NCBI RefSeq assembly: GCF_000964085.1
Contig: NZ_JZRB01000062.1
Location: forward strand, 1-37,229
Direction of reading: 5' to 3'
DNA from: Luteibacter yeojuensis
GTDB lineage: Bacteria > Pseudomonadota > Gammaproteobacteria > Xanthomonadales > Rhodanobacteraceae
DNA: 37,229 nt
In this document: positions 2,485-37,229 of the stretch, piece after piece
How the letters are laid out: the number at the start of each line of letters is the position of its first letter
Position numbering within the stretch: the stretch's first letter is position 1
Program-made: the position numbers and the translations under genes
Notes under the pieces: generated by a model
What the model was told of the DNA's origin: nothing
Seen by the model: only the letters and a program-made list of their open reading frames with translations
Databases searched by the model: none

Positions 2485-2494
2485 AACAGCGGCG

Positions 2495-4147: not shown

Positions 4148-4210
4148 GCCCTATTGTGCCGGAACCGCAGGGCGGCCATGGGCTGGCCCGCTGGACTTGC
4201 GCGGGCGCAG

Positions 4211-7918: not shown

Positions 7919-7926
7919 TCTTGCAC

Positions 7927-7954: not shown

Positions 7955-7958
7955 TCCT

Positions 7959-8022
7959 GTGGGAGCGCGCTTGCGCGCGATGGCGCTTGCCGCGAGTACA
8001 TCGCGCGCAAGCGCGCTCCCAC
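7959..8022. repeat. REPIN-like inverted repeat, family B
   Basis: Two 24-base arms (7959-7982 and 7999-8022) in inverted orientation start GTGGGAGCGCGCTTGCGCGC and flank a 16-base spacer. The spacer matches that of the element at 18189-18252 at 13 of 16 positions. It lies between the convergent ends of the arsC-like gene and hisIE and probably also ends both transcripts. Confidence 0.85.
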
Positions 8023-8045
8023 ACACACACTTTCGAGAGCGGGCT

Positions 8046-15372: not shown

Positions 15373-15375
15373 AAT

Positions 15376-15393
15376 GTACTAACGCGTTAATAC
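15376..15393. promoter_or_regulatory. TrpR-type operator palindrome of the his operon
   Basis: GTACTAACG/CGTTAATAC is an 18-base palindrome with 16 of 18 positions symmetric. Its GTACTA half resembles the trp operator half-site. It starts 3 bases before the regulator ATG (minus strand) and covers the predicted transcription start, where a bound repressor would block initiation. Confidence 0.7.
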
Positions 15394-15401
15394 GATACCC
15401 C

Positions 15402-15430
15402 ATCGTAAGGGAAAGACTACTTTCTGGCAA
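15402..15430 (-). promoter_or_regulatory. his operon promoter
   Basis: On the minus strand TTGCCA (15425-15430), a 17-base spacer and TACGAT (15402-15407) form a good sigma70-type promoter. The predicted start falls near 15393-15396, giving a leader of only about 20-25 bases. There is therefore no room for an enterobacterial-type His leader peptide and attenuator. Confidence 0.65.
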
Positions 15431-15537
15431 GAAATTCGAGAAAACGCCGACGCGAAATTGCGCTTTTCTTCCATATACCGCAGGCGAAACGGTCGCCAAG
15501 ATGGACAGCACCCCCTCCCAAGGAATGAGCCGTACGC

Positions 15538-16251: not shown

Positions 16252-18143
16252 GCCGCGGCCACCAGGCGGCCCGAGGCCACCAGGTCGCACACGGTGCGCA
16301 CATCGCCATCCATCGCGCGGTCGCGCTGCATGAAGGCGATGTGCTCGCGCAGCGTGGCCAGTGCCTGGCGCACGGCCACGCCACCGTGGAAGTCCTCGGC
16401 GCTGGCCAGGGCGCCCATCAGCGCGCGCACTTCGCGTTCGAACTGCGGGTAGTGCGGCGAATCGCTGCGCGGGGCGCCGTTGATCTTCGCCGCCAGGGCC
16501 TGCCAGTCGCCACGCTTAGAGAGCGTGCGCGCCGCGTTGAGCATGTCCTGTCGGTACTCCAGCGCCTGCGCCGCGGTGTAGAGCTCCATGGCCAGCACGT
16601 GGCCCAGGTCCTCCATCATCTCGAGCACGTGGCGGGCCTCGTTCGCGCCCATCGACACATGGTCTTCCGCGTTCGCACTGGTGGGCACCGAATACACCGA
16701 CGCCGGGTGCGCGCGCGTGGCCAGGTCGTTCACCAGCGCGGCGGCGGTGTACTGCACGATCATGAAGCCGGAATCGGTGGCGTCCTCGTTGCCGATGAGG
16801 AACGCCGGCAGGCCATCGTTATTGGCCGGGTCCACCAGCTTGGCGGTGCGCCGTTCGCTGATCGACGCGAGCACGGGGATCGCCGCCTTCACGTAGCTCA
16901 TGGCCAGCGCCAGCGGCATGCCGTGGAAGTGGCCGGCGGAGATCACCTGGTCTTCGATCACCTCGGCGTTCTCGGCATCGGGGAACACCAGCGGGTTATC
17001 GGTCACCGCGTTGAGCTCCACGTCGAACACGCGGCACGCCTGCTCCCACGCATCGCGCACCGCGCCGTGCACCTGCGGCGCGCAGCGCAGGCAGTACGCA
17101 TCCTGCGGCTGGTGCTTCTTGCCGCCCTTGAACGGCAGGAAGCGCGAATAGAACGCCTCCTTGCCATGGCGCTGCGTGGCGGGCACCCAGTCCCAGCTGA
17201 TATCGAAGCGGTACGCCTGCTCGGCCGGGTCGGCCCACGAATCCGACAGCCACGGCCGGAAGCGCGGCACCATGTGGTAGGCGATATCGGCGAGGGTCGA
17301 GCCCTGCAACAGGCGGCGGAATTCACCGGCGGCGGCCACCTGGCCCGGGTGCGGGCGCAGGTCGTGCACCTGTTCCGCGTAGGCGCCCGTGCGGCCGGCG
17401 AACGCGTCGAGCGTCATGGCCAGCGCCAGGTCGGCCGTCTTCATGAGCATCTCGAGGGTATCGAGCGCCAGCACGCCCGTGGCAAGCATCTGCGTCGTGC
17501 CGTTGTTGAGCGCCAGGCCTTCCTTGAACGAGAGGCGGATGGGCTCAAGGCCCGCGCGCCGCAGTGCCTCGGCACCCGGCAGGCGCTCGCCTTGGTAGAA
17601 CGCCTCGCCACCGCCCAGCAGCACGATGGCCAGGTGCGAGAGCGGGGCCAGGTCGCCACTGGCGCCCACCGAGCCTTTCTCGGGGATGACCGGGATGACA
17701 TCGCGGTTGAGCAACTCGGCCAGCGCGCGCAGCGTCTCCACGCGGATGCCGGAATGGCCACGCATCAGCGTGTTGACGCGAATGGCGAGCATCGCGCGCA
17801 CCACGTCGATGGCGAACGGCTTACCCACGCACACGGCGTGCGTGATGATGAGGTTGTGCTGCAGTTCCTCCATCAGCGTGCCGTCCCGCGGCTCGGGGTT
17901 GCCGCCCGGCAGCTCGTCGCGTACGCGGTGCGCACCCAGCAGCTTTTCGGCATTGCTGCCGAAGCCGGTGGTGACGCCGTAGATCGGCTCGCCGCCACCC
18001 ACTTTCGCGGCAAGGAAATCGGCGGCGCGCTTCACCTTCACCAGCTGCGCCTCGTCGAGGCGGATGCTGGCACCCTGGCGGGCGATGGCGGCGACCTGGC
18101 CGCGGGTGAGGCTGCGGCCGTCGAGGAGGATGCTGCTGGTCAT
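16248..18143 (-). CDS. hutH: histidine ammonia-lyase family protein with internal insertion
   Basis: An MIO-containing lyase that removes ammonia from histidine to give urocanate. The Ala161-Ser162-Gly163 triad that cyclises into MIO lies in GSVGASGDLAPLSH, with active-site Tyr55 in IYGVTTGFG. The selectivity position reads Thr101-His102 (LIITHAV), as in histidine rather than Phe/Tyr lyases. The 631 residues exceed the usual ~510: about 60 extra residues sit at roughly 283-346, between the LLQGS helix and QDAYCLRCAPQVHG, and the C-terminus is also extended. No hutU, hutI, hutG or hutC is adjacent. No clear ribosome site precedes the ATG. Another aromatic amino-acid lyase activity cannot be excluded. 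Confidence 0.78.
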   Translation of the reverse strand: MTSSILLDGRSLTRGQVAAIARQGASIRLDEAQLVKVKRAADFLAAKVGGGEPIYGVTTGFGSNAEKLLGAHRVRDELPGGNPEPRDGTLMEELQHNLIITHAVCVGKPFAIDVVRAMLAIRVNTLMRGHSGIRVETLRALAELLNRDVIPVIPEKGSVGASGDLAPLSHLAIVLLGGGEAFYQGERLPGAEALRRAGLEPIRLSFKEGLALNNGTTQMLATGVLALDTLEMLMKTADLALAMTLDAFAGRTGAYAEQVHDLRPHPGQVAAAGEFRRLLQGSTLADIAYHMVPRFRPWLSDSWADPAEQAYRFDISWDWVPATQRHGKEAFYSRFLPFKGGKKHQPQDAYCLRCAPQVHGAVRDAWEQACRVFDVELNAVTDNPLVFPDAENAEVIEDQVISAGHFHGMPLALAMSYVKAAIPVLASISERRTAKLVDPANNDGLPAFLIGNEDATDSGFMIVQYTAAALVNDLATRAHPASVYSVPTSANAEDHVSMGANEARHVLEMMEDLGHVLAMELYTAAQALEYRQDMLNAARTLSKRGDWQALAAKINGAPRSDSPHYPQFEREVRALMGALASAEDFHGGVAVRQALATLREHIAFMQRDRAMDGDVRTVCDLVASGRLVAAA

Positions 18144-20117: not shown

Positions 20118-20192
20118 ATTTTGATCGTTCGCTAGGCAGGTGCCCGAACGAGCCAGCAAGGATACTTGCCCTTGCTTCGCCCGTAAAGCTTT

Positions 20193-20390
20193 TTACTGGT
20201 CGTCGCCCGGATGGCCGGCAGGGTCGTTCTCGTTCTTGATGCGCTGGTAAATCTCTTCGCGGTGGACCGCGACATTCTTCGGCGCGTTGATACCAATGCG
20301 CACCTGGTTACCTTTGACACCCAGAACAGTGACCGTCACCTCGTCACCGATCATCAGGGTTTCACCGACCCGGCGGGTCAGAATCAGCAT
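20193..20390 (-). CDS. csrA: carbon storage regulator CsrA/RsmA
   Basis: A small dimeric RNA-binding protein that binds GGA motifs in mRNA leaders to block or promote translation. The 65 residues, [18 protein letters not shown] onward, are nearly identical to E. coli CsrA in the first 50; Leu4 and Arg44 (VHREE), needed for RNA binding, are present. The start at 20390 has GGAG 8 bases upstream, and that GGA could serve as an autoregulatory CsrA site. In X. citri CsrA controls the bacteria-killing T4SS after transcription (established there; for this genome an inference). Confidence 0.96.
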
Positions 20391-20407
20391 GATTGATACT
20401 CCATAAA

Positions 20408-20435
20408 ATCGTATTGGCTTCCCCACCAACGACAA
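20408..20435 (-). promoter_or_regulatory. candidate csrA promoter
   Basis: On the minus strand TTGTCG (20430-20435), a 16-base spacer and TACGAT (20408-20413), ending 17 bases before the csrA ATG. The rest of the 300-base alaS-csrA gap shows no gene. Confidence 0.5.
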
Positions 20436-20645
20436 CTCACCCCGAGTCTTGTCGCCAATGGATCGACGTTTCGACCATCGAAGGCCGAACAGCCTTGCCC
20501 GGCTATTTAAGTGCGTGTCGCTGACTAGCTGTCCTGCCTACGTCGACCCGACTGATCGATGCCGAAAGATGCGCTCCGACATTCATATGATACTAGCTGA
20601 GCCAAACGGGCTGGCGCAACGCACGGGCCGCTTAAACCGTGTACC

Positions 20646-20666
20646 GGGGCGCCTTTACGGCACCCC
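20646..20666 (-). terminator. weak candidate alaS terminator hairpin
   Basis: GGGGCGCC pairs with GGCACCCC, one mismatch, 5-base loop, 25 bases past the alaS stop. Only a short T run follows on the minus strand, so read-through into csrA is likely. Confidence 0.35.
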
Positions 20667-20690
20667 GTCGATACCCTGGCGGGGGTTTGT

Positions 20691-23324
<2,634 letters not shown>

Positions 23325-25516: not shown

Positions 25517-25732
25517 CGAACGGATCCTGACGGTAAAGGGAGGAGTTCTACCCTTCCCCGCCCGATGTGTCGATGTCGGGAATCAGGGTTCCCCTACGCA
25601 AAGTCGAGGCATGCACCGATTGCGCAACCCCGGTGAGTCCTTCACAGTTCCTTTTCGCACGTTGTGGTCGACGTCTCGCCAACGGGATGGACTCGCAGCA
25701 GGTTCCACGACGCGGCACGAGGAGAACATGGC

Positions 25733-25975
25733 ATGGATGTTCAGTTGCACCAGGCATCCCCACCGCGGCGACCGCGGGCTGGCACGATCACCGGTCGAAA
25801 CCTGTCACGCCGCGTTCGGCACTCACCGGTTGAGCATCGCCTCAAGCGGGCGTTTCGGTGGGAGCCCGCGAGTCACCACCTTAAAGTGGCAAATTCACCA
25901 GAACAGCATCAAATGACATGCGTCATCGGCAGTATTTGCCGCTGTCAACTTCTCGTCGTGCAATTTGTGGTTTAA
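25733..25975 (+). CDS. possible small basic protein, unrecognised
   Basis: An open frame of 80 residues whose ATG lies 8 bases after AGGAG (25720-25724). The product starts MDVQLHQASPPRRPRAG, is rich in Arg and His in its middle and ends hydrophobic (QLLVVQFVV). It resembles no family I know, and its codon third positions are less G/C-biased than in the neighbouring genes, which argues against a long-established gene. A second frame from the ATG at 25728 (62 residues) uses the same ribosome site but with only 3 bases of spacing. Confidence 0.22.
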   Translation: MDVQLHQASPPRRPRAGTITGRNLSRRVRHSPVEHRLKRAFRWEPASHHLKVANSPEQHQMTCVIGSICRCQLLVVQFVV

Positions 25976-25991
25976 TGAACGTACGGTAGCG

Positions 25992-26013
25992 CATGGTTGC
26001 CGCTGTAACCATG
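25992..26013. promoter_or_regulatory. inverted repeat, putative regulator site
   Basis: CATGGTT (25992-25998), 8 bases, then AACCATG (26007-26013): a perfect 7-base inverted repeat with operator-like spacing. It overlaps a second near-palindrome, GTAACCATGTTTAC (26005-26018, 12 of 14 symmetric). No GTAAA-N5-GTAAA direct repeat of the CpxR type was found. Confidence 0.45.
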
Positions 26014-26124
26014 TTTACCGTGTTTTTTCCGTGAATTGCGTCGCGATATGACCACATGAATGTTCTGGCCATTTGTTCATTCTTAGGTTAAATTTTTGAC
26101 GCGATTCCACGAGTCGCAGCGATA

Positions 26125-26139
26125 CAGGGGGATTACCTG
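26125..26139 (+). promoter_or_regulatory. hairpin presenting a GGA loop (possible CsrA site)
   Basis: CAGG (26125-26128) pairs with CCTG (26136-26139), leaving GGGATTA in the loop, the arrangement preferred by CsrA. Three more GGA triplets follow at 26238-26240, 26244-26246 (in ACAGGAAG) and 26256-26258. They count only if transcription starts upstream of 26120, which is not established. Confidence 0.35.
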
Positions 26140-26362
26140 CGCCACCCTGCGATGAGCCGATGTCACCCGACATCCTGGCTCCCGCAGCGCGCAGGTGCCA
26201 CTTCGGTACATCGATTGGCAGGGCGGCAGCATCGCCCGGAACAGGAAGTTTGAATGGAAAGCTTGCATAAGGCGCCGGGCACCAGGCCCGCGCGCAGGTA
26301 CGGACAACCAGGGGTACGGCTCGACGTTTCGCCGCCCCCAACCAAGCCACGCTCCCCGGCGA

Positions 26363-26380
26363 GTGCACGTTTTCGTGCAC
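26363..26380 (+). promoter_or_regulatory. perfect hairpin GTGCACG-TTTT-CGTGCAC
   Basis: A 7-base perfect stem with a TTTT loop, 125 bases before virB7. No T run follows, so it is not a standard terminator; it could be an RNA structure in the virB leader or a protein-binding palindrome. Confidence 0.45.
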
Positions 26381-26504
26381 CCCAGGGCGCTCAGCTGCCG
26401 ATTACGCACTAACTGCACCTGCTGGGCCGTGGCCCGACGCGGGCGGATCATCGTGTCCGCCTTATGAGAATTGTTACTGATTTTCAACAAGTTACGAGCG
26501 AAAC

Positions 26505-27008
26505 GTGAAAACACGCCAGACCAACCTCGTCCTGATTGGCATCATTACGGTGCTTTCGTCAGCCCTTACGGGTTGCGGAACCCCGCCCGCGCGCGACTTC
26601 GGCGGTTCCTGGAAGCCGGTGAACCACTTCGAGGACAAGACCACCGAGATCCCGCTCGCGGTGCCGTACACGTACTACGCGGCGCCGATGGACGGCACGC
26701 TGAAGACGATGCTCACCCGGTGGACCACCGATAACGGCATGAAGCTGCAGTACAAACTGCGGTCGGATTTCACGTTGACCAAGTCGGCAACGGCAATCCA
26801 CACCTCCGAGCTGCGCGACGCGGCTTCGCAGCTGAGTTCGATCTATGCCCCCCAAGGCGTGGCGGTCACGGTGAGCGGCCCCGATCTCGTCGTCGACGAG
26901 GTGAGCAACATCACCGCGCCGCCAGCCGCGCCGTCGGCCGCCGTGCCTGCCACGGGGGCCCGACCGGCCTCCGCCGCAGAGCATGTCGCCGTCACCGACA
27001 GCAAGTGA
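26505..27008 (+). CDS. virB7: VirB7 lipoprotein with N0-like domain
   Basis: The outer-membrane-anchored component of the T4SS core complex, binding VirB9. The 167-residue product has a lipoprotein signal with lipobox LTGC (lipidated Cys24), then GGSWKPVNHF, the short VirB7-type segment that contacts VirB9. Residues about 50-135 form an alpha/beta domain (GTLKTMLTRWTTDNGMKLQY, then IYAPQGVAVTV) resembling N0 domains of secretins; classical VirB7 ends before this. A VirB7 with an N0 domain is the published hallmark of Xanthomonadaceae T4SS. The tail is Ala/Pro-rich. The start is GTG at 26505 with a weak ribosome site. Its stop overlaps virB8 (GTGA). Confidence 0.85.
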   Translation: MKTRQTNLVLIGIITVLSSALTGCGTPPARDFGGSWKPVNHFEDKTTEIPLAVPYTYYAAPMDGTLKTMLTRWTTDNGMKLQYKLRSDFTLTKSATAIHTSELRDAASQLSSIYAPQGVAVTVSGPDLVVDEVSNITAPPAAPSAAVPATGARPASAAEHVAVTDSK

Positions 27009-28108
27009 GCGCGGACACGCCCATGCTCAGGAAAAAGAACTCCCCGAAGATCGACGAAGCCGTCCAGCAGGGCGTGAACTTCGAGGTCACGCTTTCGGAC
27101 AACGCTCGCCGCGCCGAAAAGCGCGCGTGGACCGTCGCCATCTGCTCGTGCATCGTGTCGGTGATCCTCGCAGGCGGCTACTTCTACATGCTGCCGCTGA
27201 AGGAAAAAGTCCCCTTCATCGTCCTCGCCGATCCGTACTCCGGCACGGCTTCGGTCGCGCGCCTCACCGATGACCTGGTCAATCGCCAGATCACCAGTAG
27301 CGAAGCGGTGAACCGCAGCAACATCGCGCACTTCATCATTGCCCGCGAGTCGTACGACCTCGCGATCAGCAACCTGCGCGACTGGCCGACGGTGCTCACG
27401 ATGTCGTCGCCCGATGTCGCCCAGCCGTACCTCGACCTGCATGCGGATGGGAACCCCCAGGCCCCCTTCAAGGTGTACGGCAAGGCGCACGCCATCCGCA
27501 TCAAGATCCTCAGCATCGTGCTGAATGGCGTGCCGGGGCAGACGCCCACGGGGGCCACCGTCCGCTTCCAGCGCAGCGTGTACGACAAGAACAACGGTTC
27601 GAGCTATCTGCTCGATAGCAAGATCGCCACCATGGCGTTCTCGTACAAGCCGAACCTGCGCATGGACGACCAGAACCGCATCGAGAACCCGCTGGGCTTC
27701 CAGGTCTCGAGCTACCGCGTCGATAACGATTACGGTAATGCGCCCCCGCCGGAGGTGCCGGTCACCGCACCGGCTGGCGCAGCTGGCCAGCCGGCCCCCG
27801 TGGGTGCCGCACAGGCAGCGGATGCGCCCGGCCCCACCGCTGCCGGGCAGCCGGCCTACGGCGCCCCGGGTGCCGTGCCGCCGGCCCAGCCGCAAACGCA
27901 GCCGGGTGTGTCGCAGTACCCGCCGCCAGGGGCAGGCGCCGCACCGATTCCGCTCGCCCCGGCCAATGGCATCCCGCCATCCACCATCCCGACCGAAGCC
28001 ACGTACCCTGCCCAGCCGCCTGCGGCCGGTGCGGGCGCGGCAAGGCAGCCCGCCGCTGCCGCGGCATCTCCCGCGAACCGAAGCGCCGCCAATGGAGGGC
28101 GCCGTTGA
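27005..28108 (+). CDS. virB8: VirB8 inner-membrane T4SS protein with Pro/Ala tail
   Basis: A bitopic inner-membrane assembly factor. A cytoplasmic N-terminus (to about 40), one membrane helix (about 41-62, AICSCIVSVILAGGYFYM) and the NTF2-like periplasmic domain (about 70-242), with SNIAHFIIARESYD and the YKPNLRMDDQNRIENPLGF end, are typical. Residues 246-367 add a low-complexity Pro/Ala/Gln/Gly tail of about 120 residues beyond the ~230-residue family norm, presumably periplasmic and disordered. The start is GTG at 27005 overlapping the virB7 stop; ATG 27023 is an alternative. Confidence 0.9.
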   Translation: MSADTPMLRKKNSPKIDEAVQQGVNFEVTLSDNARRAEKRAWTVAICSCIVSVILAGGYFYMLPLKEKVPFIVLADPYSGTASVARLTDDLVNRQITSSEAVNRSNIAHFIIARESYDLAISNLRDWPTVLTMSSPDVAQPYLDLHADGNPQAPFKVYGKAHAIRIKILSIVLNGVPGQTPTGATVRFQRSVYDKNNGSSYLLDSKIATMAFSYKPNLRMDDQNRIENPLGFQVSSYRVDNDYGNAPPPEVPVTAPAGAAGQPAPVGAAQAADAPGPTAAGQPAYGAPGAVPPAQPQTQPGVSQYPPPGAGAAPIPLAPANGIPPSTIPTEATYPAQPPAAGAGAARQPAAAAASPANRSAANGGRR

Positions 28109-28920
28109 TGAACCACTCCAGCAAGCTGAGCCTGGCCTGCTCGCTCGGCCTCGCCCTCGCCGTGGCGTTCCCCGCCGCGCGTGCAGAGACGCCGGCCGAA
28201 GCCGTCCCTTCACCTTCGCTCACGTCCAACCCGGCCGTGCAGTCCTACGAGTTCCAGCCCGATCGCATCTTCACGATCCGCACCGGCCTGGGCATCACCA
28301 CGCAGATCGAACTCAGCCCGAACGAGAAGATCCTGGATTACAGCACGGGCTTCAGCGCCGGCTGGGACCTCACGCGTCGTGACAACGTGTTCTACGTCAA
28401 GCCGAAAAACGTTGACGTGGATACGAACATGATGATCCGTACCGCCACGCACTCCTACATCTTCGAGTTGAAGGTCGTCGCCACCGACTGGAAGACGCTG
28501 GACCAGGCACGTCGCGCGGGCGTCCAGTACAAGGTGGTGTTCACCTACCCCTCCGATACGAGCTTCATGGCCGAATCGAAGAAGGTGGAAGAAGCGCCCA
28601 TGCTCGATACCGAGCTGGTAAAAGGCCGCGACTACAACTTCGATTACGACTTTTCGAAAACGCGCCGCACCGCCAAATGGCTCGTGCCCGTCAATGTCTA
28701 CGACGACGGCCGCTTCACCTACATCAAGATGCCGGACCTCAAGCAGTTCCCGACGGGTAACTTCCCGACGGTCTACATGCGCGAAAAGGAACACGGAGAC
28801 GACTCGGTGGTGAACACGACCGTGGAAGGCAACACCATCGTTGTCCACGGCACGTACCCCTACCTGGTTATTCGTCACGACGACAACGTCGTGGGTCTGC
28901 GAAGGAACACCAAGAAGTGA
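28108..28920 (+). CDS. virB9: VirB9 outer-membrane core component
   Basis: Forms with VirB7 and VirB10 the T4SS outer-membrane core complex. It has 270 residues with a Sec signal peptide (cleavage after ARA, residue 26). The N-terminal domain runs over about 45-150 (YEFQPDRIFTIRTGLGITTQ) and the C-terminal VirB7-binding beta domain over about 170-270, with YNFDYDFSKTRRTAKWLVPV and VYDDGRFTYIKMPD (family signatures). The ATG shares one base with the virB8 stop. Confidence 0.92.
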   Translation: MNHSSKLSLACSLGLALAVAFPAARAETPAEAVPSPSLTSNPAVQSYEFQPDRIFTIRTGLGITTQIELSPNEKILDYSTGFSAGWDLTRRDNVFYVKPKNVDVDTNMMIRTATHSYIFELKVVATDWKTLDQARRAGVQYKVVFTYPSDTSFMAESKKVEEAPMLDTELVKGRDYNFDYDFSKTRRTAKWLVPVNVYDDGRFTYIKMPDLKQFPTGNFPTVYMREKEHGDDSVVNTTVEGNTIVVHGTYPYLVIRHDDNVVGLRRNTKK

Positions 28921-30218
28921 GCCCGAACACGCCTTACACCCCGGACGACGAGTCCAACCGCGGCCATGCGCCGAACGAGAACCGTGGCGACCAGCGCGAT
29001 CCGCTGGCCGGCAACCCGTACTCGAACCAGCAGCGCCAGGCCCCGCCGCCGGACCTCGACAGCGCCGCGCCGCAGCTCACCTCCAACGACCTGCGACGCA
29101 TGAACCGCAGTGCGCTCGGCCTGCTGGCCGGCATCGTGCTGCTGCTCGTGGTCGTGGCGTTCTGGCTCTTCAGCAGCAGCGGCAACAACAGCACGCCGGT
29201 GGCCAAGCCCAAGGAAGAGACAGTGACGGTGCCCGATGCGCCGAACGTCACGCCGCAGCCGCAGCCGCCGCAAGCCCAGCCGATCCAGCTGGCACCCGCG
29301 CTACCGCCGCAGGAAGCGCGGCCGGAACTGCCGCCGATGCCGCCGCCGCAGGCGGCCCCGGGCCCGCACATCCCCACCCTGCTCGAGCGTCGCATCGCCG
29401 CCGCCAACAACGGCGCCGGTATCCAGGCCGTGGGCGACAGCGGCCAGGCCCAGCTCGCCCCCAACGCCCCGCCTGGCGGTGGCATGGGCGGCATGGGTGG
29501 CCCCATGGGCGGTATGGCCAGCGTGCCCGGCATGCCCGGCCAGCCCTACCGCAACGCGTATAGCGCCAGCGACAACATCGCCTACAACGGCAAGGATCTA
29601 CCGGACGTCTCCAGCGCCTCGCCGCTGCAGCACCCGGATACCCTGATGCTGCGTGGCACGTTCATCCGCTGCGTGCTTGAGACGCGCATCATCACCGACA
29701 TGCCGGGCTTCACGTCCTGCGTGGTGACCGAGCCCGTGTATTCGTTCACCGGCAAGCGCCTGCTGCTGCCGAAGGGCTCGAAGGTGCTGGGCAAATACGA
29801 GATGGAGCCGAGCGGCCCGCGCGTTGCCGTCATCTGGGACCGCATCGTTACCCCCACTGGCATCGACGTGAACATGGCCAGCCCCGGCGTCGATACGCTG
29901 GGCGCCGCCGGCCACCCCGGCATGTACAACGCCCACTGGGGCAGCCGAATCGGCGCGGCCCTGCTGATCAGCCTGCTCAGCGATGCGTTCAAGTACGAGG
30001 CTGCCAAGAACGGGCCGCGCCAGACCGAGATCAGCAATGGCGTCGTGACGCAGAGCCCGTTCGAGAGCAACACGGCCGAAACGATCCAGCAGCTGGCCAA
30101 CCAGGCGGTCCGCCGCCAGGCCAACCGCCCGGCCACCGTCACGATCAACCAGGGCACTGTCCTCGCCATCTACGTGGCCAAGGACGTCGACTTCGCTGGC
30201 GTCGTGGCACGGTACTGA
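28917..30218 (+). CDS. virB10: VirB10 energy-sensing core component
   Basis: Spans both membranes and signals ATP use to the outer-membrane channel. The 433 residues show a cytoplasmic Pro/Asn-rich N-terminus, one membrane helix (about 67-86, LGLLAGIVLLLVVVAFWLF), a Pro-rich periplasmic arm, LLERRIAA, and a Gly/Met-rich run (GGGMGGMGGPMGGM) near 186-200. The C-terminal beta-barrel domain follows with LMLRGTFIRCVLETRI, GSKVLGKYEME and the outer-membrane helix region IGAALLISLLSDAF. The start is GTG at 28917, overlapping the virB9 stop (GTGA). Confidence 0.92.
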   Translation: MSPNTPYTPDDESNRGHAPNENRGDQRDPLAGNPYSNQQRQAPPPDLDSAAPQLTSNDLRRMNRSALGLLAGIVLLLVVVAFWLFSSSGNNSTPVAKPKEETVTVPDAPNVTPQPQPPQAQPIQLAPALPPQEARPELPPMPPPQAAPGPHIPTLLERRIAAANNGAGIQAVGDSGQAQLAPNAPPGGGMGGMGGPMGGMASVPGMPGQPYRNAYSASDNIAYNGKDLPDVSSASPLQHPDTLMLRGTFIRCVLETRIITDMPGFTSCVVTEPVYSFTGKRLLLPKGSKVLGKYEMEPSGPRVAVIWDRIVTPTGIDVNMASPGVDTLGAAGHPGMYNAHWGSRIGAALLISLLSDAFKYEAAKNGPRQTEISNGVVTQSPFESNTAETIQQLANQAVRRQANRPATVTINQGTVLAIYVAKDVDFAGVVARY

Positions 30219-30225
30219 GGCACGC

Positions 30226-31263
30226 ATGGAAAGCGCACTGGCCGCCGTCGGCAACGACTTCCTCGACTACCAGTACGAAGTGCTGGGGGTGAAGGATTTC
30301 CTTGCCGAGCCGGACGTCACCGAAATCTGCATCAACCGCCCCGGCGAGCTCTACCTCGAGCGCCGTGGCGGCTGGCAGCGGGTGGAAGTGCCCTCGCTCA
30401 CCTTCGAGCGGGCGCGCCAGTTCTGCACGGCCGTGGTCAACGAAAGCAACACGGGCCAGCGCATCACCGATCTCGACCCCGTAGTGTCGCTCACCTTCCC
30501 GACCGGGCAGCGTGCGCAGTTCGTCATCCCGCCCGCCTGTGAGGCCGGCCGGGTGTCGATCACCATCCGCCTCCCCTCGAAGCAGACACGAACGCTCGCC
30601 CAGTACAGCGACGATGGCTTCTTCGACGAGATCCTGGAGGGTGCCAACAGCATCAGCCAGGCCGACAAGGAACTGCTGGAACTACGCGCCGAGCGCCGCT
30701 ACGCGGATTTTTTCCGCCACGCCGTGCTCAACAAGAAGAACATCGTCGTGGCCGGCGCCACCGGCAGCGGCAAGACCACGTTCATGAAATCGCTGGTGCA
30801 TCACATCCCGGCGGATGAACGCCTGGTCACCATCGAGGATGCCCGCGAGCTGTTCATCGACCAGCCCAATGTCGTGCACCTGCTCTATTCCAAGGGCGGC
30901 CAGAGCGCCGCCAACGTCACCGCCAAGAGCTGCATGGAGGCCTGCCTGCGCATGAAGCCGGACAGGATCATCCTGGCCGAGCTGCGCGGTGACGAATCGT
31001 TCTACTTCATCCGTAATTGCGCCTCCGGCCACCCGGGTTCGATCACAAGCTGCCATGCCGGCAGCGTGGAGCAGACCTGGGACCAGCTGGCGCTGATGGT
31101 GAAGGCCTCGACGGAAGGCGCGGGGCTCGAGTTCAGCACGATCAAACGGCTCCTGATGCTCACCATCGACATCGTGGTGCACATCAAGGCGCATGCGGGC
31201 CGGCGCTACATCACCGGTATCGATTTCAACCCGGCTCGCGCGTTGGGCGCGGACGGGGGGTAA
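30226..31263 (+). CDS. virB11: VirB11 traffic ATPase
   Basis: A hexameric cytoplasmic ATPase of the PilT/GspE superfamily that drives pilus assembly and substrate transfer. The 345 residues have an N-terminal domain (to about 150), Walker A GATGSGKTT (177-185), an Asp box (TIEDARELF), Walker B RIILAELRG and a His box (GHPGSITSCHAGS). The ATG lies 7 bases after the virB10 stop. Confidence 0.94.
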   Translation: MESALAAVGNDFLDYQYEVLGVKDFLAEPDVTEICINRPGELYLERRGGWQRVEVPSLTFERARQFCTAVVNESNTGQRITDLDPVVSLTFPTGQRAQFVIPPACEAGRVSITIRLPSKQTRTLAQYSDDGFFDEILEGANSISQADKELLELRAERRYADFFRHAVLNKKNIVVAGATGSGKTTFMKSLVHHIPADERLVTIEDARELFIDQPNVVHLLYSKGGQSAANVTAKSCMEACLRMKPDRIILAELRGDESFYFIRNCASGHPGSITSCHAGSVEQTWDQLALMVKASTEGAGLEFSTIKRLLMLTIDIVVHIKAHAGRRYITGIDFNPARALGADGG

Positions 31264-31301
31264 CACTCCAGAACATCGGTCATGAGACAGGAGCTGTAAA
31301 G

Positions 31302-32399
31302 GTGCTACCAGGACTTGAAATGATGGGTTGCCAGAACCTTGCCGTGCCGGCCGAGGTGATGCAGCACGTCGTCAACGTCGAATCCAGCCGCAACCCCTAC
31401 GCCATCGGCGTGGTGGGTGGCCAGCTCGTGCGCCAGCCGCAGAACCTCGGCGAAGCCGTGGCCACGGTGCAGATGCTCGAACAAAAAGGCTACAACTACT
31501 CGCTTGGCGTCGCGCAGGTGAACCGCTCGAACCTCGGCAAGTACGGCCTCGACAGCTACGAAAAGGCCTTTGACGTGTGCCCGAACCTCCGCGCCGGGTC
31601 GCGCATCCTCGCGCAGTGCTATGCCAGCGCGAGCAAGGACTGGGGCAAGGCATTCAGCTGCTACTACTCGGGCAACTTCACCACCGGCTACCGCGACGGC
31701 TACGTGCAGCGCATCTACGAATCCATCGCGAAGAGCAGCCTGGCCGGCGCCACGGCCATCCCATTGCAGCGCGCGACCGCCACCCCCGTGCGCGTGGTCA
31801 GCGTGGGCAAGGGCGTCACGGGCGTGACTACCGACAGCCCGGCGTACCGCGTCGCCATGCGCAGCGTGCTGGATGCAGCGGCCTCTGCCTTCGTTTCGCC
31901 AGCCATGGCGTCCGAAGCACCGCCGCAGGCCGCCTCGCCGCAGGATCTGCCGAACGTACCCGGGAGCATCCCGGGGAATCTGCCCAACGGTTACGGCAAT
32001 GGCTACGGCAACCCAGTACTCGACGAGGGCCCGCCGCCCCCGCCCGGCCGCATCCCGACCGACCCGGCCACCGCCGCGATGATGCGCCAGGTGGGCCCAC
32101 GGCTACCCCAGGGCAACAGTAATCCGCAGCCGGGCCGGATCGTGACCGATCCGGGTACCGCCGCCGTGATGTCGCAGATCGGCGTCTCGGCCAACCCGAA
32201 CGGCAGCTCGCCTGCGCAGCAGGACAACAGCGTGTTCGAGCCGCAGGTACGTGGCCCGAACGACCCGCCGCAAGCCGCGCCTATGCAGGCCGTGCCCATG
32301 CAGGGGCAGCCCATGCAGGCGCCGACGGCGCCGCAGATGCCGGCGCGCGACCCTGCCGACACACGCAACGGAGGTGGCGATGGCGCCTTCGTCTTCTGA
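31302..32399 (+). CDS. virB1: VirB1 lytic transglycosylase with long Pro-rich tail
   Basis: Opens peptidoglycan for T4SS assembly. Residues about 12-150 form an SLT-type domain with the catalytic Glu27 in VVNVESSRNPYAIGVVGG and the SLGVAQVN and CYYSGNFTTGY motifs. The start is GTG at 31302 with AGGAG 8 bases upstream; from there the protein begins MLPGLEMMGCQN and has no recognisable signal peptide. The C-terminal half (about 205-365) is Pro/Gln/Met-rich and contains a duplicated 18-residue motif at 248-265 and 277-294 (PGRIPTDPATAAMMRQVG and PGRIVTDPGTAAVMSQIG). The order virB11-virB1 is that of Xanthomonas. Confidence 0.88.
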   Translation: MLPGLEMMGCQNLAVPAEVMQHVVNVESSRNPYAIGVVGGQLVRQPQNLGEAVATVQMLEQKGYNYSLGVAQVNRSNLGKYGLDSYEKAFDVCPNLRAGSRILAQCYASASKDWGKAFSCYYSGNFTTGYRDGYVQRIYESIAKSSLAGATAIPLQRATATPVRVVSVGKGVTGVTTDSPAYRVAMRSVLDAAASAFVSPAMASEAPPQAASPQDLPNVPGSIPGNLPNGYGNGYGNPVLDEGPPPPPGRIPTDPATAAMMRQVGPRLPQGNSNPQPGRIVTDPGTAAVMSQIGVSANPNGSSPAQQDNSVFEPQVRGPNDPPQAAPMQAVPMQGQPMQAPTAPQMPARDPADTRNGGGDGAFVF

Positions 32400-32443
32400 G
32401 CGCACGCGGTGCGCACGTTTTCGCATATCGGGCAGTGCTGCCC
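32400..32443 (+). promoter_or_regulatory. stem-loop pair between virB1 and virB2
   Basis: GCGCAC-GCG-GTGCGC (32400-32414) and GGGCAG-TG-CTGCCC (32430-32443) are perfect stems directly after the virB1 stop. The first is followed by ACGTTTTCG, the second has no T run. They occupy the largest intergenic gap of the operon (130 bases) in front of the pilin gene. They may act as a weak terminator or as an mRNA processing and stability element. Confidence 0.5.
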
Positions 32444-32529
32444 GCCATGCAGGCCTTCGGGCCAACCCTAGCCCGGTGGCACCCGACCACCGGAAAACCA
32501 AGACCACCCCAGTAGAAAGGAAACACGAG

Positions 32530-32961
32530 ATGGCCCTGCCTGCCCTGTCCAAGGTTATCGCCAAGAGCAAGAACCCGGTGAAGAACGCCGTCGGCCTCGC
32601 CGCCCTGTTCACCGCCCTCCTGATCCCGAGCCTCGCCTTTGCGCAGATCGGCGACACGGGCACCAAGGTGTGCGGCTTCTTCCAGAACATCAACTCGCTG
32701 CTCAACGCCGCGTCCATCGTGGTGGTGACCATCGCCGTCATTTTCTCCGGCTACCAGATCGCGTTCGCCCACAAGCGCATCGCCGACGTGGCCCCTGCCC
32801 TCATCGGCGGCGTACTCATCGGCGCCGCCGCCCAGGTGGCCAAGATGGTCGTCGGCGGCAACGGTGGCGGCAACGGCGCCACCGCATGCACCTCCAGCAG
32901 CGGTGGCTTCCTGATGGACGCCATCAACACCGCCGTGCACCTGCTGCAGATCCATGCATAA
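32530..32961 (+). CDS. virB2: VirB2 major pilin
   Basis: The pilus subunit. The 143-residue precursor has a long basic-hydrophobic signal peptide cleaved after AFA (residue 38), leaving about 105 residues. Two hydrophobic helices (ASIVVVTIAVIFSGYQIAFA and PALIGGVLIGAAAQVAKMVV) flank a basic loop HKRIAD, the standard VirB2 hairpin. The mature C-terminus is longer than usual, with a Gly/Asn stretch (GGNGGGNGATACTSSSGGF) and a Cys that could pair with Cys48. A good ribosome site (AAAGGAAA) lies upstream. It overlaps virB3 by 8 bases. Confidence 0.9.
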   Translation: MALPALSKVIAKSKNPVKNAVGLAALFTALLIPSLAFAQIGDTGTKVCGFFQNINSLLNAASIVVVTIAVIFSGYQIAFAHKRIADVAPALIGGVLIGAAAQVAKMVVGGNGGGNGATACTSSSGGFLMDAINTAVHLLQIHA

Positions 32962-33265
32962 GAACCCGCTGTTCCGGGGCTGCACCCGCCCGCCCATGTT
33001 CATGGGCGTGCCCTACGTGCCGTTTTTCATGGGCACGGGCACGGGGCTGCTCCTGGCGATGTACTTCAACTTCTGGTACCTGCTGCTCATTCCCTGCGTG
33101 GTCTTCGTGATGCGCCAGATGGCGCGCCGCGACGAGATGATCTTCCGGCTGCTTGGCCTGCGCCTGCAGTTCAAGACCCGTGTAAGGAACGTGCCGCAGC
33201 ATGACGGGATGTGGGTATTCACGCCGAACAGCTACCGCGATCCATCGAAGGACAAGCGAAAGTAA
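32954..33265 (+). CDS. virB3: VirB3 inner-membrane T4SS protein
   Basis: A small inner-membrane protein that associates with VirB4 and the inner-membrane complex. The 103 residues show the family start KNPLFRGCTRPPMFMGVPY, two close membrane segments (about 17-50) and RRDEMIFRLLGLRLQFKTR. The ATG lies within the last codons of virB2. Confidence 0.9.
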   Translation: MHKNPLFRGCTRPPMFMGVPYVPFFMGTGTGLLLAMYFNFWYLLLIPCVVFVMRQMARRDEMIFRLLGLRLQFKTRVRNVPQHDGMWVFTPNSYRDPSKDKRK

Positions 33266-33277
33266 GTAAGGACAGGC

Positions 33278-33303
33278 GCCCCGGCGTGCACGCACGCCGG
33301 GGC
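33278..33303 (+). promoter_or_regulatory. perfect 11-base stem-loop between virB3 and virB4
   Basis: GCCCCGGCGTG (33278-33288) and CACGCCGGGGC (33293-33303) form an uninterrupted GC-rich stem with a CACG loop. It ends 19 bases before the virB4 ATG and has no following T run. Such a stem would block 3' exonucleases and could protect the upstream virB2-virB3 message. Confidence 0.65.
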
Positions 33304-33322
33304 CTCTACAGCTCCAACGGCC

Positions 33323-35797
33323 ATGACCACCATGTTCACACCCGACGCGCCCATCTCCACGCACATCACGCTCTCCGCCCACGTCTCGCCTTCGGTGGTG
33401 AAGACGACGGGTGGCGACTTCCTGCTGACCTGGCGCCTCAGCGGGCTGCCGTTCGTCGGCCGCGAAGAGTGGGAACTGGAACACCGCCACAATTCCTTCA
33501 ACCGCATGCTGCAGACGCTGCGTGCGCCCGATTACACCAACGTGGCGTTCTGGGTGCATGACATCCGCCGCCGCCGCGGCATCCGCGACAAGTCGAAATT
33601 CGGCCAGGCCTTCAACCAAGACCTCTCCAACGCCTACTTCGATGCGCTGACCTCGCAGAAGCTCATGCAAAACGAGCTTTACCTGACGATGATGTACCGC
33701 CCGATCGTCCACGGTAAGCGCTTCGCGGAGAAATCCTCCGACGTGCAGCGCCTCGAGGCCGAGCAGGCCCAGGCCATCGCCACCGTGCTCGAACTCGCAG
33801 GCAACATTGAGGCCGTGCTCAAGGACTACGCCCCTACCCGCCTCGGCATGTACGAGGCGCCCAACGGCATCGTGTTCTCCGAAGTGCTGGAGCTCTTCGG
33901 CTACATCCTCAATCGAGTGGACGAGCCGGTGCCCGTGCTGAAGGCACCTATCTACGATTACCTGCCCGTGAGCCGCCAGCGTTTCTCGGCCAAGACCGGC
34001 GATTTCGTCTTAACCGCGCCCGATGGCAAGAACCACTTCGGCGCCATCCTCAACCTCAAGGAATATGTGGACGGCACCTATCCCGGCATCCTCAACGGGC
34101 TGAAGTTCCTCGATTTCGAATACGTCGTGACCCATTCGTTCACGCCCATGGGCCGCCAGGATGCCCTGCGCGCGCTGGAGCGCACCAAGGGCATGATGGT
34201 GTCGTCCGGCGACAAGGCCGTAAGCCAGATCATCGAGCTGGACCACGCGATGGACCAGCTGGCCTCCGGCAATTTCGTGCTGGGCGAGTACCATTTCACG
34301 ATCGCCGTGTTCGCGCCGAGCCAGGAGGCCCTGTCGCACCAGATCGCCTCCACGCGCGCCGAACTCTCCAACGCCGGCTTCGTAACCGTCAAGGAAGACC
34401 TCGCCGTCACGGCCGCCTTCTATGCCCAGTTCCCGGGTAACTGGAAGTACCGCACGCGCCTGGCCAACGTCAGCTCGCTGAACTTCCTGGGGCTATCGCC
34501 CCTGCACAACTTCGCCACGGGCAAGAAGGAAAACAACCCGTGGGGCGCCTGCGTCACCACGCTGCAGACCACCAACGGCCAGCCGTACTACTTCAACTTC
34601 CACGCCACCCACCCCGCCGAAAACTCGCTGGGTGAAAAGGCCATCGCCAACACCATGGTGATCGGTAAGTCGGGTACCGGTAAGACCGCGCTCATCAACT
34701 TCCTGCTGAGCCAGGTGCAGAAGCTCGACCCGGCGCCGACCATCTTCTTCTTCGACAAGGATCGCGGCGCCGAGATTTTCGTGCGTGCGTGCGGCGGCAA
34801 TTACCTCGCCCTGGAGAACGGCAAGCCCACCGGCTTCAACCCGTTCCATTGCGAGCGCAACGAAGAAAACGTGCAGTTCCTGGCCGATCTCATCAAGGTG
34901 CTCGCGGGCAAGAGCGTGTACAGCTCACGGGAGGAGGAAGACATCTTCCGCGCCGTCGACAACATGCTCGACACGCCGATGCACCTGCGCAACATGACGA
35001 ACTTCCAGAAGAGCCTGCCGAACCTGGGCGATGACGGCCTCTTCGTGCGCATGCGCAAATGGACCGCCGGCAACTCACTGGGGTGGGTATTCGACAACCC
35101 ACACGACACGGTGGACCTGACGAAGGCCAATATCATCGGCTTTGACTACACGGACATCATCGATAACCCCGAAGTGCGCGTGCCGGTCATCAACTACCTG
35201 CTGCACCGCCTCGAGGCCCTGATCGACGGCCGCCGCCTCATCTACGTGATGGACGAGTTCTGGAAGATCCTCGACGGCAAGGGTGGCCTCAAGGAATTCG
35301 CCAAGAACAAGCAGAAGACCATTCGTAAGCAGAACGGCATGGGCATCTTCGCCACCCAGAGCCCGGAAGATGCCCTGGCCAGCGATATCGCCTCCGCGCT
35401 CATCGAGCAGACGGCCACCATGGTGCTGCTGCCGAACCCGAACGCGAGCCGCGAGGATTACGTCGATGGCCTGAAGCTCACCGAAGCCGAATACCAGGTG
35501 GTGGTGAGCCTCGACGAGCGCTCGCGCTGCTTCCTCGTGAAGCAGGGCCATGCCTCTGCGGTGTGCCAGCTCAACCTGCGTGGCATGGACGATGCCCTCG
35601 CGGTCATCTCCGCCTCCACGGACAACATCGAGATCATGCACGAGGTATTGCAGGTACGTGCCGAGGCCGAAGGCGTTTCGCCGAACGACCTGCGCCCTGA
35701 GCAGTGGCTGCAGATGTTCTACGACAACCGGAAGGGAAGCGGAAAAGGAAATCCGTCGCCCCGCCCCACCCCTAATTCGTCCCGACGTGCCGCCTGA
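33323..35797 (+). CDS. virB4: VirB4 T4SS ATPase
   Basis: The largest and most conserved T4SS ATPase, at the inner membrane. The 824 residues show the CagE/TrbE/VirB N-terminal domain (about 1-420) and the RecA-like C-terminal domain with Walker A GKSGTGKT (448-455), FFFDKDRGAEIFVRA, Walker B LIYVMDEFWKIL and ATQSPEDAL. No Shine-Dalgarno sequence is visible before the ATG (CTCCAACGGCC), so expression may depend on the upstream stem-loop or on re-initiation. The C-terminus is Pro/Ser/Arg-rich. Confidence 0.95.
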   Translation: MTTMFTPDAPISTHITLSAHVSPSVVKTTGGDFLLTWRLSGLPFVGREEWELEHRHNSFNRMLQTLRAPDYTNVAFWVHDIRRRRGIRDKSKFGQAFNQDLSNAYFDALTSQKLMQNELYLTMMYRPIVHGKRFAEKSSDVQRLEAEQAQAIATVLELAGNIEAVLKDYAPTRLGMYEAPNGIVFSEVLELFGYILNRVDEPVPVLKAPIYDYLPVSRQRFSAKTGDFVLTAPDGKNHFGAILNLKEYVDGTYPGILNGLKFLDFEYVVTHSFTPMGRQDALRALERTKGMMVSSGDKAVSQIIELDHAMDQLASGNFVLGEYHFTIAVFAPSQEALSHQIASTRAELSNAGFVTVKEDLAVTAAFYAQFPGNWKYRTRLANVSSLNFLGLSPLHNFATGKKENNPWGACVTTLQTTNGQPYYFNFHATHPAENSLGEKAIANTMVIGKSGTGKTALINFLLSQVQKLDPAPTIFFFDKDRGAEIFVRACGGNYLALENGKPTGFNPFHCERNEENVQFLADLIKVLAGKSVYSSREEEDIFRAVDNMLDTPMHLRNMTNFQKSLPNLGDDGLFVRMRKWTAGNSLGWVFDNPHDTVDLTKANIIGFDYTDIIDNPEVRVPVINYLLHRLEALIDGRRLIYVMDEFWKILDGKGGLKEFAKNKQKTIRKQNGMGIFATQSPEDALASDIASALIEQTATMVLLPNPNASREDYVDGLKLTEAEYQVVVSLDERSRCFLVKQGHASAVCQLNLRGMDDALAVISASTDNIEIMHEVLQVRAEAEGVSPNDLRPEQWLQMFYDNRKGSGKGNPSPRPTPNSSRRAA

Positions 35798-35834
35798 TCG
35801 CCAGCCCCATGGCCCTTCGCATCGGATAAGTAAC

Positions 35835-36620
35835 ATGAACAAGTACACCACCAAGCGCCGCCCCCTCGCCCACCAGGCCTGCAAAGCCCTGGTCGCCCTT
35901 GGCCTGACCGTTGCCGCGGGCTTCTACGCGATGCCCAGCCGGGCGCAGTGGATCGTCGAAGACCCAGTCGCCATCGCAAAGAGCGTTGAGGAATACGCGA
36001 ACCAGCTGCAGCGCTGGCTGGAAACCGCACAGCATTACAGGGACCAGGTCCAGTTCTGGCAGGACAACCTGACCGCCCTGCAAAGCCTGCAGTTCGATTT
36101 GCTGCGCACCCAGCAGCAGTTCAAGAAGGTTTCCGACGACTTTGGCGTTACTGAAGCATGCCCCGGCGCCAGCACATCCCTGTTGAGTGGTGACATCACA
36201 TCGGCGCTCACGTCGGTGGTGGGCAACCTGACCGGTGATATCGCATCGCAGCAGAATGCCGTTTGCGTGATGATCCGCCGCACAAAGAACCAGCGGTACA
36301 ACAACACCGTCGATTACCTCAACCAGGTCACCAAGCAGACCGACACGCTTTCGAAGCTCGCCAGCATGCGCCTCAACCTAGTGGGTACCTCACCGGGCAA
36401 GACCCAGGCACTGCAGGAAGACACCGGGCGGTTCAGCGTCAACGTGGCCCAGGCACGCGACTCCTGGAAAACCACGGACGAGCAACTGGCGGCGCAGATC
36501 GCCGCGCTGCAGGATAAGCAGGGCATGTTGGGGCGCCAGATGATGAACGGCAAGACGGAAGTCCTGGGTACGGTCATCAACGCCGCGATCCTCGAAACCG
36601 CATTGAAAGTAGGCAACTGA
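35835..36620 (+). CDS. virB5: VirB5 minor pilus component
   Basis: A periplasmic/pilus-tip protein. The 261-residue precursor has a basic start and a signal peptide cleaved after SRA (residue 37). The mature part is predominantly helical: IAKSVEEYANQLQRWLETAQ, QSLQFDLLRTQQQFKKVSDD and a C-terminal Gln-rich helix (DEQLAAQIAALQDKQGML), the VirB5 pattern. Two Cys (in EACPG and NAVCVMI) may form a disulphide. The ribosome site is weak. Confidence 0.85.
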   Translation: MNKYTTKRRPLAHQACKALVALGLTVAAGFYAMPSRAQWIVEDPVAIAKSVEEYANQLQRWLETAQHYRDQVQFWQDNLTALQSLQFDLLRTQQQFKKVSDDFGVTEACPGASTSLLSGDITSALTSVVGNLTGDIASQQNAVCVMIRRTKNQRYNNTVDYLNQVTKQTDTLSKLASMRLNLVGTSPGKTQALQEDTGRFSVNVAQARDSWKTTDEQLAAQIAALQDKQGMLGRQMMNGKTEVLGTVINAAILETALKVGN

Positions 36621-36685
36621 TACTGGCCACGGAAGACCGCCAAAGCCGATTGCCACCGCGCCACATGGCCAGGGACTAGAGAGAT

Positions 36686-37229
36686 ATGCAGCCCAGTATT
36701 GCCGATTACGTATTCTTCAAACTTATCTACAACTACCTCGAAGACAAGATCGACAAGTTTGGCCTCGAGGTCATGCACCGCTTCATGACCTGGGCGGCGA
36801 CCTTCGCGCTCATCCTCGTGACCATCTACATCCTTATCCAGGGCTTCCGGGTCATGACCGGCCGCTCGCGCGAACCGCTGATGGAGGTCGTCATCAACCT
36901 CGGCCGCATCGTCGTCATCGTCTCGGCCGCCACGGCCATGGCCATTGGCAACACCAACCTGTCGGATTTCCTGACGAAGGACCTCGACCGGCACGTGCAC
37001 TACATGTTCACCGGCGAAGACAACAAGACGACGGCGGATGCGATCGACGAGAACCTTGCCTACACCCAGCTGGCCATGGCGGCCATCGATGCGGTGAAGG
37101 TCGTGAACGACGATGGCGAGCTCCAGGGCGACAAGGCCCGCGCCATGCTCATCGCCGGCGCGGGCGCCTCGTCGCCGCCGATGGCCGCTGGCGCCATGCT
37201 CCTTCTCTATAAGTTCGCGATGGCCCTGT
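36686..37229 (+). CDS. virB6: VirB6 inner-membrane channel protein (partial, cut by window end)
   Basis: The first 181 residues of a polytopic inner-membrane protein, beginning MQPSIADYVFFKLIYNYLED. Hydrophobic segments lie at about 34-53 (WAATFALILVTIYILIQGF) and 70-90 (INLGRIVVIVSAATAMAIG), with a third starting near 168 at the window edge; the GFRVMTGR turn is typical of VirB6/TrbL. AGAGAG precedes the ATG. The frame is open to the last base. Confidence 0.85.
   Translation, partial: MQPSIADYVFFKLIYNYLEDKIDKFGLEVMHRFMTWAATFALILVTIYILIQGFRVMTGRSREPLMEVVINLGRIVVIVSAATAMAIGNTNLSDFLTKDLDRHVHYMFTGEDNKTTADAIDENLAYTQLAMAAIDAVKVVNDDGELQGDKARAMLIAGAGASSPPMAAGAMLLLYKFAMAL

What the first reader, a model, noticed from the sequence alone, without database searches (positions are those of the whole stretch)
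26505..37229. Xanthomonadales-type (bacteria-killing) type IV secretion operon
The order virB7-8-9-10-11-1-2-3-4-5-6 and, decisively, a VirB7 lipoprotein carrying a C-terminal N0-like domain are the marks of the X-T4SS described in Xanthomonas citri, which injects toxic effectors into rival bacteria. No relaxase, mobility gene or integrase is nearby, which argues against conjugation. The cluster sits beside a conserved housekeeping block (pncC-recA-recX-alaS-csrA), so it looks like a resident trait. virD4, effectors with XVIPCD tails and immunity lipoproteins should lie outside the window.
Basis: partly seen in the sequence, partly recalled or inferred. Interest (0 to 1): 0.75.

Follow-up and report, generated by a model that had tools for sequence, protein, structure and literature searches.

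The report
Bacteria-killing type IV secretion system
A soil bacterium related to Luteibacter carries a needle-like machine, already described in its relatives, that most likely injects toxic proteins into rival bacteria; it is a well-supported but ordinary new example.

Summary
Genes virB7-8-9-10-11-1-2-3-4-5-6 lie at 26505-37229; virB6 is cut by the contig end (the window is all of contig C104). VirB7 matches the solved Xanthomonas citri VirB7 (E=2.3e-38), and its modelled domain fits the N0 crystal structure (rmsd 1.0, target TM-score 0.92). VirB8 has the Ala/Gln/Gly/Pro-rich tail that marks these systems. The predicted missing parts exist elsewhere in the genome: one VirD4 and seven proteins with XVIPCD tails, five of them with VirD4 on contig C78. 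Six of the seven have a neighbouring candidate immunity gene, but only two of seven candidates show a strict lipobox. No relaxase of two searched families was found. In a related single-contig genome recA-pncC, virB7-6, effectors, virD4 and mutS are contiguous, so C104 and C78 are probably neighbours. The four published X-T4SS criteria are met, virB6 being only partly visible. Luteibacter is already listed in the 2019 review, so this is a new member of a known kind. Killing itself is inferred. More open leads: a second T4SS on C46 with no coupling protein near it, and an HExxH effector with no visible immunity gene.

The parts
26505..27008 (+). virB7, 167-aa lipoprotein (lipobox LTGC, Cys24), TEIPL motif at 47, C-terminal N0 domain
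27005..28108 (+). virB8, 367 aa, with a 126-aa C-terminal extension that is 72% Ala+Gln+Gly+Pro
28105..28920 (+). virB9, core complex
   Evidence: X. citri VirB9 6gyb E=4e-110
28917..30218 (+). virB10, core complex
   Evidence: X. citri VirB10 6gyb E=3.1e-108
30226..31263 (+). virB11 ATPase
   Evidence: TIGR02788 over cut-off
31260..32399 (+). virB1, lytic transglycosylase domain (GTG start inferred from overlap with the virB11 stop)
   Evidence: PF01464; scanned from 31263
32530..32961 (+). virB2 pilin (start inferred)
   Evidence: PF04956; scanned inside 32251-32958
32954..33265 (+). virB3
   Evidence: PF05101
33323..35797 (+). virB4 ATPase, 824 aa
   Evidence: TIGR00929 over cut-off; 79-94% identity to the 80 best chromosomal relatives
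35835..36620 (+). virB5, minor pilin, weakly recognised (start inferred)
   Evidence: weak TrbJ match, position between virB4 and virB6; scanned from 35823
36686..37229 (+). virB6, first 181 aa; cut by the contig end
   Evidence: PF04610 4.6e-13
25517..26504 (.). 988-base gap between pncC and virB7 that should hold the operon's promoter and leader
   Evidence: read directly; function inferred

Best explanation
This is the structural operon of an X-T4SS, the class A type IV secretion system that Xanthomonas citri and Stenotrophomonas maltophilia use to kill other Gram-negative bacteria, in a Luteibacter species near L. anthropi. Inferred working: VirB7/9/10 form the outer core with an N0 ring; VirB3/4/6/8/11 form the inner-membrane engine; VirB2/5 the pilus. 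The single VirD4 (contig C78) binds the XVIPCD tail of toxic effectors and feeds them through the channel into a touching rival. There two lipases, one M23 peptidase, two GH19-type enzymes, a peptidoglycan-binding protein and an HExxH protein attack membrane, cell wall or other targets, while neighbouring secreted or membrane proteins protect the producer. Shown here: gene content, N0 fold, VirB8 tail, VirD4, XVIPCD effectors, absence of two relaxase families. Inferred: secretion, VirD4-tail binding, toxicity, immunity and killing.
For: Complete virB order; VirB7/9/10 match the solved X. citri killing core complex 6gyb at 2.3e-38, 4e-110, 3.1e-108; N0 fold; VirB8 tail 126 aa, 72% AQGP against 129 aa, 71% for L. 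rhizovicinus in PMC6536674 Table 2; VirD4 on C78, the only PF02534 match at E<=0.001; seven PF20410 XVIPCD proteins, all over cut-off, none in 14 control genomes; effector E5 matches the solved S. maltophilia T4SS effector TfcB, 7r6s, 8.1e-93 (identity of 7r6s from passages of PMC11253643); genus-wide conservation: VirB7, VirD4 and XVIPCD each in 23 of 23 genomes, own included; VirB4 tree; no PF03432 or PF08751 relaxase; plasmid VirB4s all under 60% identity among the 5000 records that the capped search kept.
Against: No experiment. virB6 is incomplete and its missing end was not found. Only 2 of 7 candidate immunity proteins have a strict lipobox; E7 has no visible candidate. Only two relaxase families were searched; no oriT or integrase search. 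The tree's relatives were chosen by similarity, and the tool warns about long plasmid branches. Such a machine could in principle also move DNA or act on eukaryotes.
Confidence: 0.94

Rival explanations
1. A conjugation system (plasmid or integrative element) that moves DNA.
For: Class A virB genes are shared with conjugation; VirD4 carries TrwB/TraG domains.
Against: No PF03432 or PF08751 relaxase in the genome; VirB7 is 167 aa with N0; VirB4 stands apart from 9 plasmid rows, of which 5 are typed conjugative, 2 mobilizable, 2 non-mobilizable; seven XVIPCD effectors; same site beside recA-pncC in other Luteibacter.
Confidence: 0.02
2. An X-T4SS machine that acts mainly on eukaryotes (for example fungal hosts of endohyphal Luteibacter) and not on bacteria.
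For: Some Luteibacter live in fungi (abstract start of PMC9040847 in the listing); GH19 domains also occur in chitinases.
Against: Several effectors carry peptidoglycan-binding domains and one an M23 peptidase, with adjacent candidate immunity genes; E5 is a relative of the antibacterial TfcB. In a fungus-Luteibacter co-culture study none of 12 T4SS genes was differentially expressed (one passage of PMC9040847; weak evidence).
Confidence: 0.03
3. A relic: the operon is no longer functional.
For: virB6 cannot be seen whole; the assembly is a draft.
Against: The other ten virB genes and virD4 are open frames; VirB7 and VirD4 are found in 23 of 23 genus genomes.
Confidence: 0.01

Closest known systems
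Xanthomonas citri chromosomal X-T4SS (VirB/VirD4; core complex PDB 6gyb)
   Same: one operon of eleven virB genes beginning with virB7, N0-bearing VirB7 with TEIPL motif, AQGP-rich VirB8 tail, VirD4, XVIPCD effectors (criteria and features from PMC6536674)
   Different: virD4 lies downstream, beyond an effector array (read from the relative G003 and from C78), not directly upstream of virB7; five effectors share a contig with virD4, where X. citri has one effector gene in its vir locus (PMC6536674 section 13).
Luteibacter rhizovicinus DSM16549 X-T4SS (listed in PMC6536674)
   Same: same genus; VirB8 tail 129 aa/71% against 126 aa/72% here
   Different: this strain's record was not fetched; another strain, LP_13_YM, was (L029, VirB4 85% identical).
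Stenotrophomonas maltophilia VirB/VirD4 X-T4SS and effector TfcB
   Same: E5 is a TfcB relative (7r6s, 8.1e-93)
   Different: E5 has a peptidoglycan-binding domain, PF01471; whether TfcB lacks it was not tested.

Membership tests
X-T4SS | chromosomal location (criterion i of PMC6536674) | tested here: met
   window flank is recA-pncC; in G003, a single 4,994,364-base contig, the locus lies between recA-pncC and mutS. The window's own genome is a draft.
X-T4SS | VirB7 with C-terminal N0 domain (criterion ii) | tested here: met
X-T4SS | all twelve class A subunits (criterion iii) | tested here: met
   eleven virB genes in the window plus virD4 on C78; virB6 seen only in its first 181 aa, VirB5 match weak
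X-T4SS | effectors with C-terminal XVIPCD (criterion iv) | tested here: met
   seven PF20410 matches, all over cut-off
X-T4SS | AQGP-rich VirB8 extension | tested here: met
   126 aa, 72%; the rest of VirB8 has 23%
X-T4SS | [T/S]EIPL motif before N0 | tested here: met
   TEIPL at residue 47; I49, P50, L51 invariant in 29 aligned VirB7s
X-T4SS | cognate immunity genes next to effectors | tested here: inconclusive
   candidates beside 6 of 7 effectors, signal- or membrane-like N-termini judged by eye; strict lipobox in 2 of 7 candidate proteins
X-T4SS | contact-dependent killing that needs VirD4 | not testable with these tools
   needs an experiment
conjugative T4SS | relaxase | tested here: not met
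   no PF03432 or PF08751 match at E<=0.1 in the genome; relaxases outside these two families not searched
conjugative T4SS | oriT | not tested
   no search made

The most novel reading that the evidence does not exclude
The genome has two type IV secretion systems but one VirD4 coupling protein that I could find. The second system (contig C46, after a pilus cluster that looks chaperone-usher by eye) has virB11, 2, 3, 4, 8, 9, 10, 6 and a likely virB1, but no VirD4 match on its contig; in 8 of the 9 Luteibacter genomes that carry it, the nearest VirD4 match is over 150 kb away or on another contig. The most novel reading not excluded is that the VirD4 of the killing system also serves this second machine, or that the second machine exports a substrate without any coupling protein. 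A very divergent VirD4 could have been missed.
Probability: 0.07. Interest if true: 0.5.

Novelty: new member of a known kind. Interest (0 to 1): 0.13.

Why it matters
It confirms that this antibacterial weapon is widespread in the genus Luteibacter (VirB7, VirD4 and XVIPCD each in 23 of 23 genomes searched) and gives a genus-specific arsenal to test. It does not change what is known about the system. Useful leads are an HExxH effector with no Pfam domain in its N-terminal part and a small unnamed family of three proteins beside the two lipase effectors and virD4.

Tried and rejected
Detached virD4 as a novelty: rejected. virD4 looked separate only because of the contig break. In G003 it lies about 22 kb downstream of virB7 on one contig, and PMC6536674 already says that virD4's position varies (passage).

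CsrA control: X. citri CsrA represses virB through the virB7 leader (passages of PMC7286519), and csrA lies in the window between 20151 and 20700, - strand (named by eye). ANGGA is not enriched in the window (166 found, 195.8 expected) and no leader-specific test was made, so nothing is claimed.

Missing half of virB6: the only TrbL matches in the genome are the truncated window copy and the C46 system, so the rest probably lies in an assembly gap.

Solved-structure look-up for immunity candidate I3 found nothing at E<=0.1.

Plasmid VirB4s: 9 of the 40 listed hits were fetched. Two of the 80 loci (L073, L075) were dropped from the tree for a stop inside the aligned segment.

Full report
Observation. 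The window is the whole of contig C104 (37,229 bases) of a 4.55-Mb draft genome of 144 contigs. From 26505 to its right end it carries virB7-8-9-10-11-1-2-3-4-5-6 on the + strand, close together and often overlapping. Pfam and NCBIfam matches name the genes other than virB7 (named by its match to solved structures) and virB5 (weak match only); virB6 is cut by the contig end after 181 residues. This is far beyond chance.

VirB7. The 167-residue protein has a lipobox (LTGC), a TEIPL motif at residue 47 and a C-terminal domain. Pfam TcpQ (N0-like as I recall) is reached only below its cut-off (25.4 against 27 bits). Against solved structures the result is plain: X. citri VirB7 from the killing core complex (6gyb, 2.3e-38), its NMR structure (2l4w, 1.9e-35) and the crystal of its globular domain (3ov5, 3.6e-22). 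An AlphaFold2 model from 29 aligned VirB7s is confident over the domain (pLDDT blocks 91-97 for residues 51-130) and poor elsewhere. Foldseek finds the same three X. citri structures first (3ov5: rmsd 1.0, TM-score 0.92 on the target, 0.47 on the whole query) and secretin N0 domains next, at weaker E-values of 0.016 and above.

Other marks. VirB9 and VirB10 match the same X. citri complex at 4e-110 and 3.1e-108. VirB8 has a 126-residue tail, 72% Ala+Gln+Gly+Pro, against 23% in the rest of the protein. The review PMC6536674 (abstract, sections 4, 10 and 13, and passages seen) names this tail as a mark of X-T4SSs and gives 129 residues and 71% for Luteibacter rhizovicinus.

The rest of the system. 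The genome has one VirD4 (PF02534, 5.5e-108), on contig C78, and seven proteins with an XVIPCD tail (PF20410), all over the cut-off: five on C78, one on C68, one on C63; none of 14 control genomes matches. By Pfam they are E1, with a peptidoglycan-binding domain and an unnamed N-terminus; E2 and E3, class 3 lipases (little over the cut-off); E4, an M23 peptidase with a peptidoglycan-binding domain; E5 and E6, GH19 with peptidoglycan-binding domains; E7, no Pfam domain besides XVIPCD but an HEVQH motif at residue 214. E5 matches the solved S. maltophilia effector TfcB (7r6s) at 8.1e-93. The string GLxRIDxV occurs in E1, E2, E5 and E6; E3 (GLAHVDSV), E4 (GLTGISSA) and E7 (GLQRIDQI) depart from it. 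Six of the seven effectors have a neighbouring gene for a protein whose N-terminus looks like a signal or membrane anchor by eye (one an LprI lysozyme-inhibitor relative). Two of the seven candidate proteins carry a strict lipobox. Three of the candidates are related to each other (25-33% identity) and match no Pfam family at E<=0.01.

Contiguity. In G003, a genus relative on one contig of 4,994,364 bases, the order is recA, pncC, virB7 to virB6, effector region, virD4, mutS. C104 maps to the virB side and C78, reversed, to the virD4-mutS side. The two contigs are therefore probably neighbours, with the rest of virB6 in or near the break; no read evidence was available. Of an even sample of 61 genomes of the order, 55 had a mutS match and the 30 best loci (own genome included) were examined: pncC lies within 1.5 kb of mutS in 13 of 30. 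Within the window's own family it does so in only 1 of 7 other genomes (same calls). So the system may occupy a gap between two genes that are neighbours in many members of the order, but the family itself mostly lacks that arrangement and I did not look at what lies between the genes there.

Relatives. VirB7, VirD4 and XVIPCD are each found in 23 of 23 genomes of the genus, own included. Among the 80 best VirB4 relatives (of 292 found), VirB7 was found in 74, its match reaching residue 120 or beyond in 73; VirD4 lies in the held flank of 44, and an XVIPCD frame in the held flank of 55. Some of these loci are short or cut by contig ends. RecA was found in 9 of 80 loci and PncC in 8 of 80; those printed are Luteibacter.

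Tree. With 78 of those 80 loci, the C46 system and 9 plasmid rows, the window's VirB4 falls in a group of 79 with support 100 that holds no plasmid row; its nearest row is L. anthropi at 95% identity. Caution: the loci were the most similar to the window, the plasmid branches are long, and the tool warns about them. The 5000 plasmid records that the capped search kept all have less than 60% identity to it.

Conjugation. No match to the relaxase families PF03432 or PF08751 at E<=0.1 in the genome. Other relaxase families, oriT and integrases were not searched.

Mechanism. Shown: the parts. Inferred from X. citri and S. maltophilia work (passages of PMC6536674 and PMC6759196): VirD4 recognises the XVIPCD tail, the effectors cross the channel on contact and attack the envelope of the rival, while immunity proteins protect the producer and its kin.

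Verdict. The four published criteria are met, with virB6 only partly visible. PMC6536674 already lists Luteibacter species with this system, among them Luteibacter sp. OK325 and UNCMF331Sha3.1 (passage of its Table 1). The finding is correct and ordinary: a new member of a known kind.

Noticed in passing
L015 (G000 C46:200001-219000), 5534-17050: A second class A T4SS (virB11, 2, 3, 4, 8, 9, 10, 6 by Pfam and a likely virB1 by eye) directly after a pilus cluster that looks chaperone-usher by eye, with no VirD4 match on its contig. Its VirB4 has close matches (83-100%, own included) in 9 of 23 Luteibacter genomes, 4 of the 9 with one TGA inside the match. Comparing places, in 8 of the 9 the nearest VirD4 match is over 150 kb away or on another contig; the ninth (G012) is too fragmented to say.
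   Followed up: partly
L121 (G014 C3), 883-3192 and 3903-4637, - strand: Several Luteibacter genomes carry extra VirD4 paralogues 55-72% identical to the X-T4SS VirD4, at other places than the main one. In G014 one stands near a frame that looks XVIPCD-like by eye. The window's genome has none.
   Followed up: partly
L021 and L067 (one contig of Luteibacter sp. UNCMF331Sha3.1); G020 C7; G021 C11: Some Luteibacter seem to carry two X-T4SS copies in tandem: virB4 or virB7 copies about 13-15 kb apart (the second virB7 match of G021 holds a stop).
   Followed up: no
L014 3440-5236 (G000 C63): XVIPCD protein E7: HEVQH motif, no Pfam domain in its N-terminal 450 residues, no clear immunity gene next to it. 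Its tail region is 71% identical to that of E6 (C68); these two remote effectors share a tail insert that the five on C78 lack.
   Followed up: partly
L012 379-990, 1081-1686, 4830-5453 (G000 C78): Three related proteins (25-33% identity) beside the lipase effectors and virD4, sharing a CHW string seen by eye and without a Pfam match: possibly an undescribed family of lipase immunity proteins.
   Followed up: partly
L012 10203-13119 (G000 C78): Four small proteins between the C78 end that should face virB6 and the effectors; three were scanned and are DUF4189, the fourth looks alike by eye.
   Followed up: partly
L047, L056, L057, L058, L062: Records labelled Comamonadaceae (Variovorax, Acidovorax, Xenophilus) have VirB4s that fall inside the Rhodanobacteraceae part of the tree, which suggests horizontal transfer; PMC6536674 already notes the system in Burkholderiales.
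   Followed up: no
window 20151-20700 and 25517-26504: csrA (named by eye) lies about 6 kb from virB7; X. citri CsrA represses virB through the virB7 leader (passages of PMC7286519). Whether it does so here is untested.
   Followed up: partly
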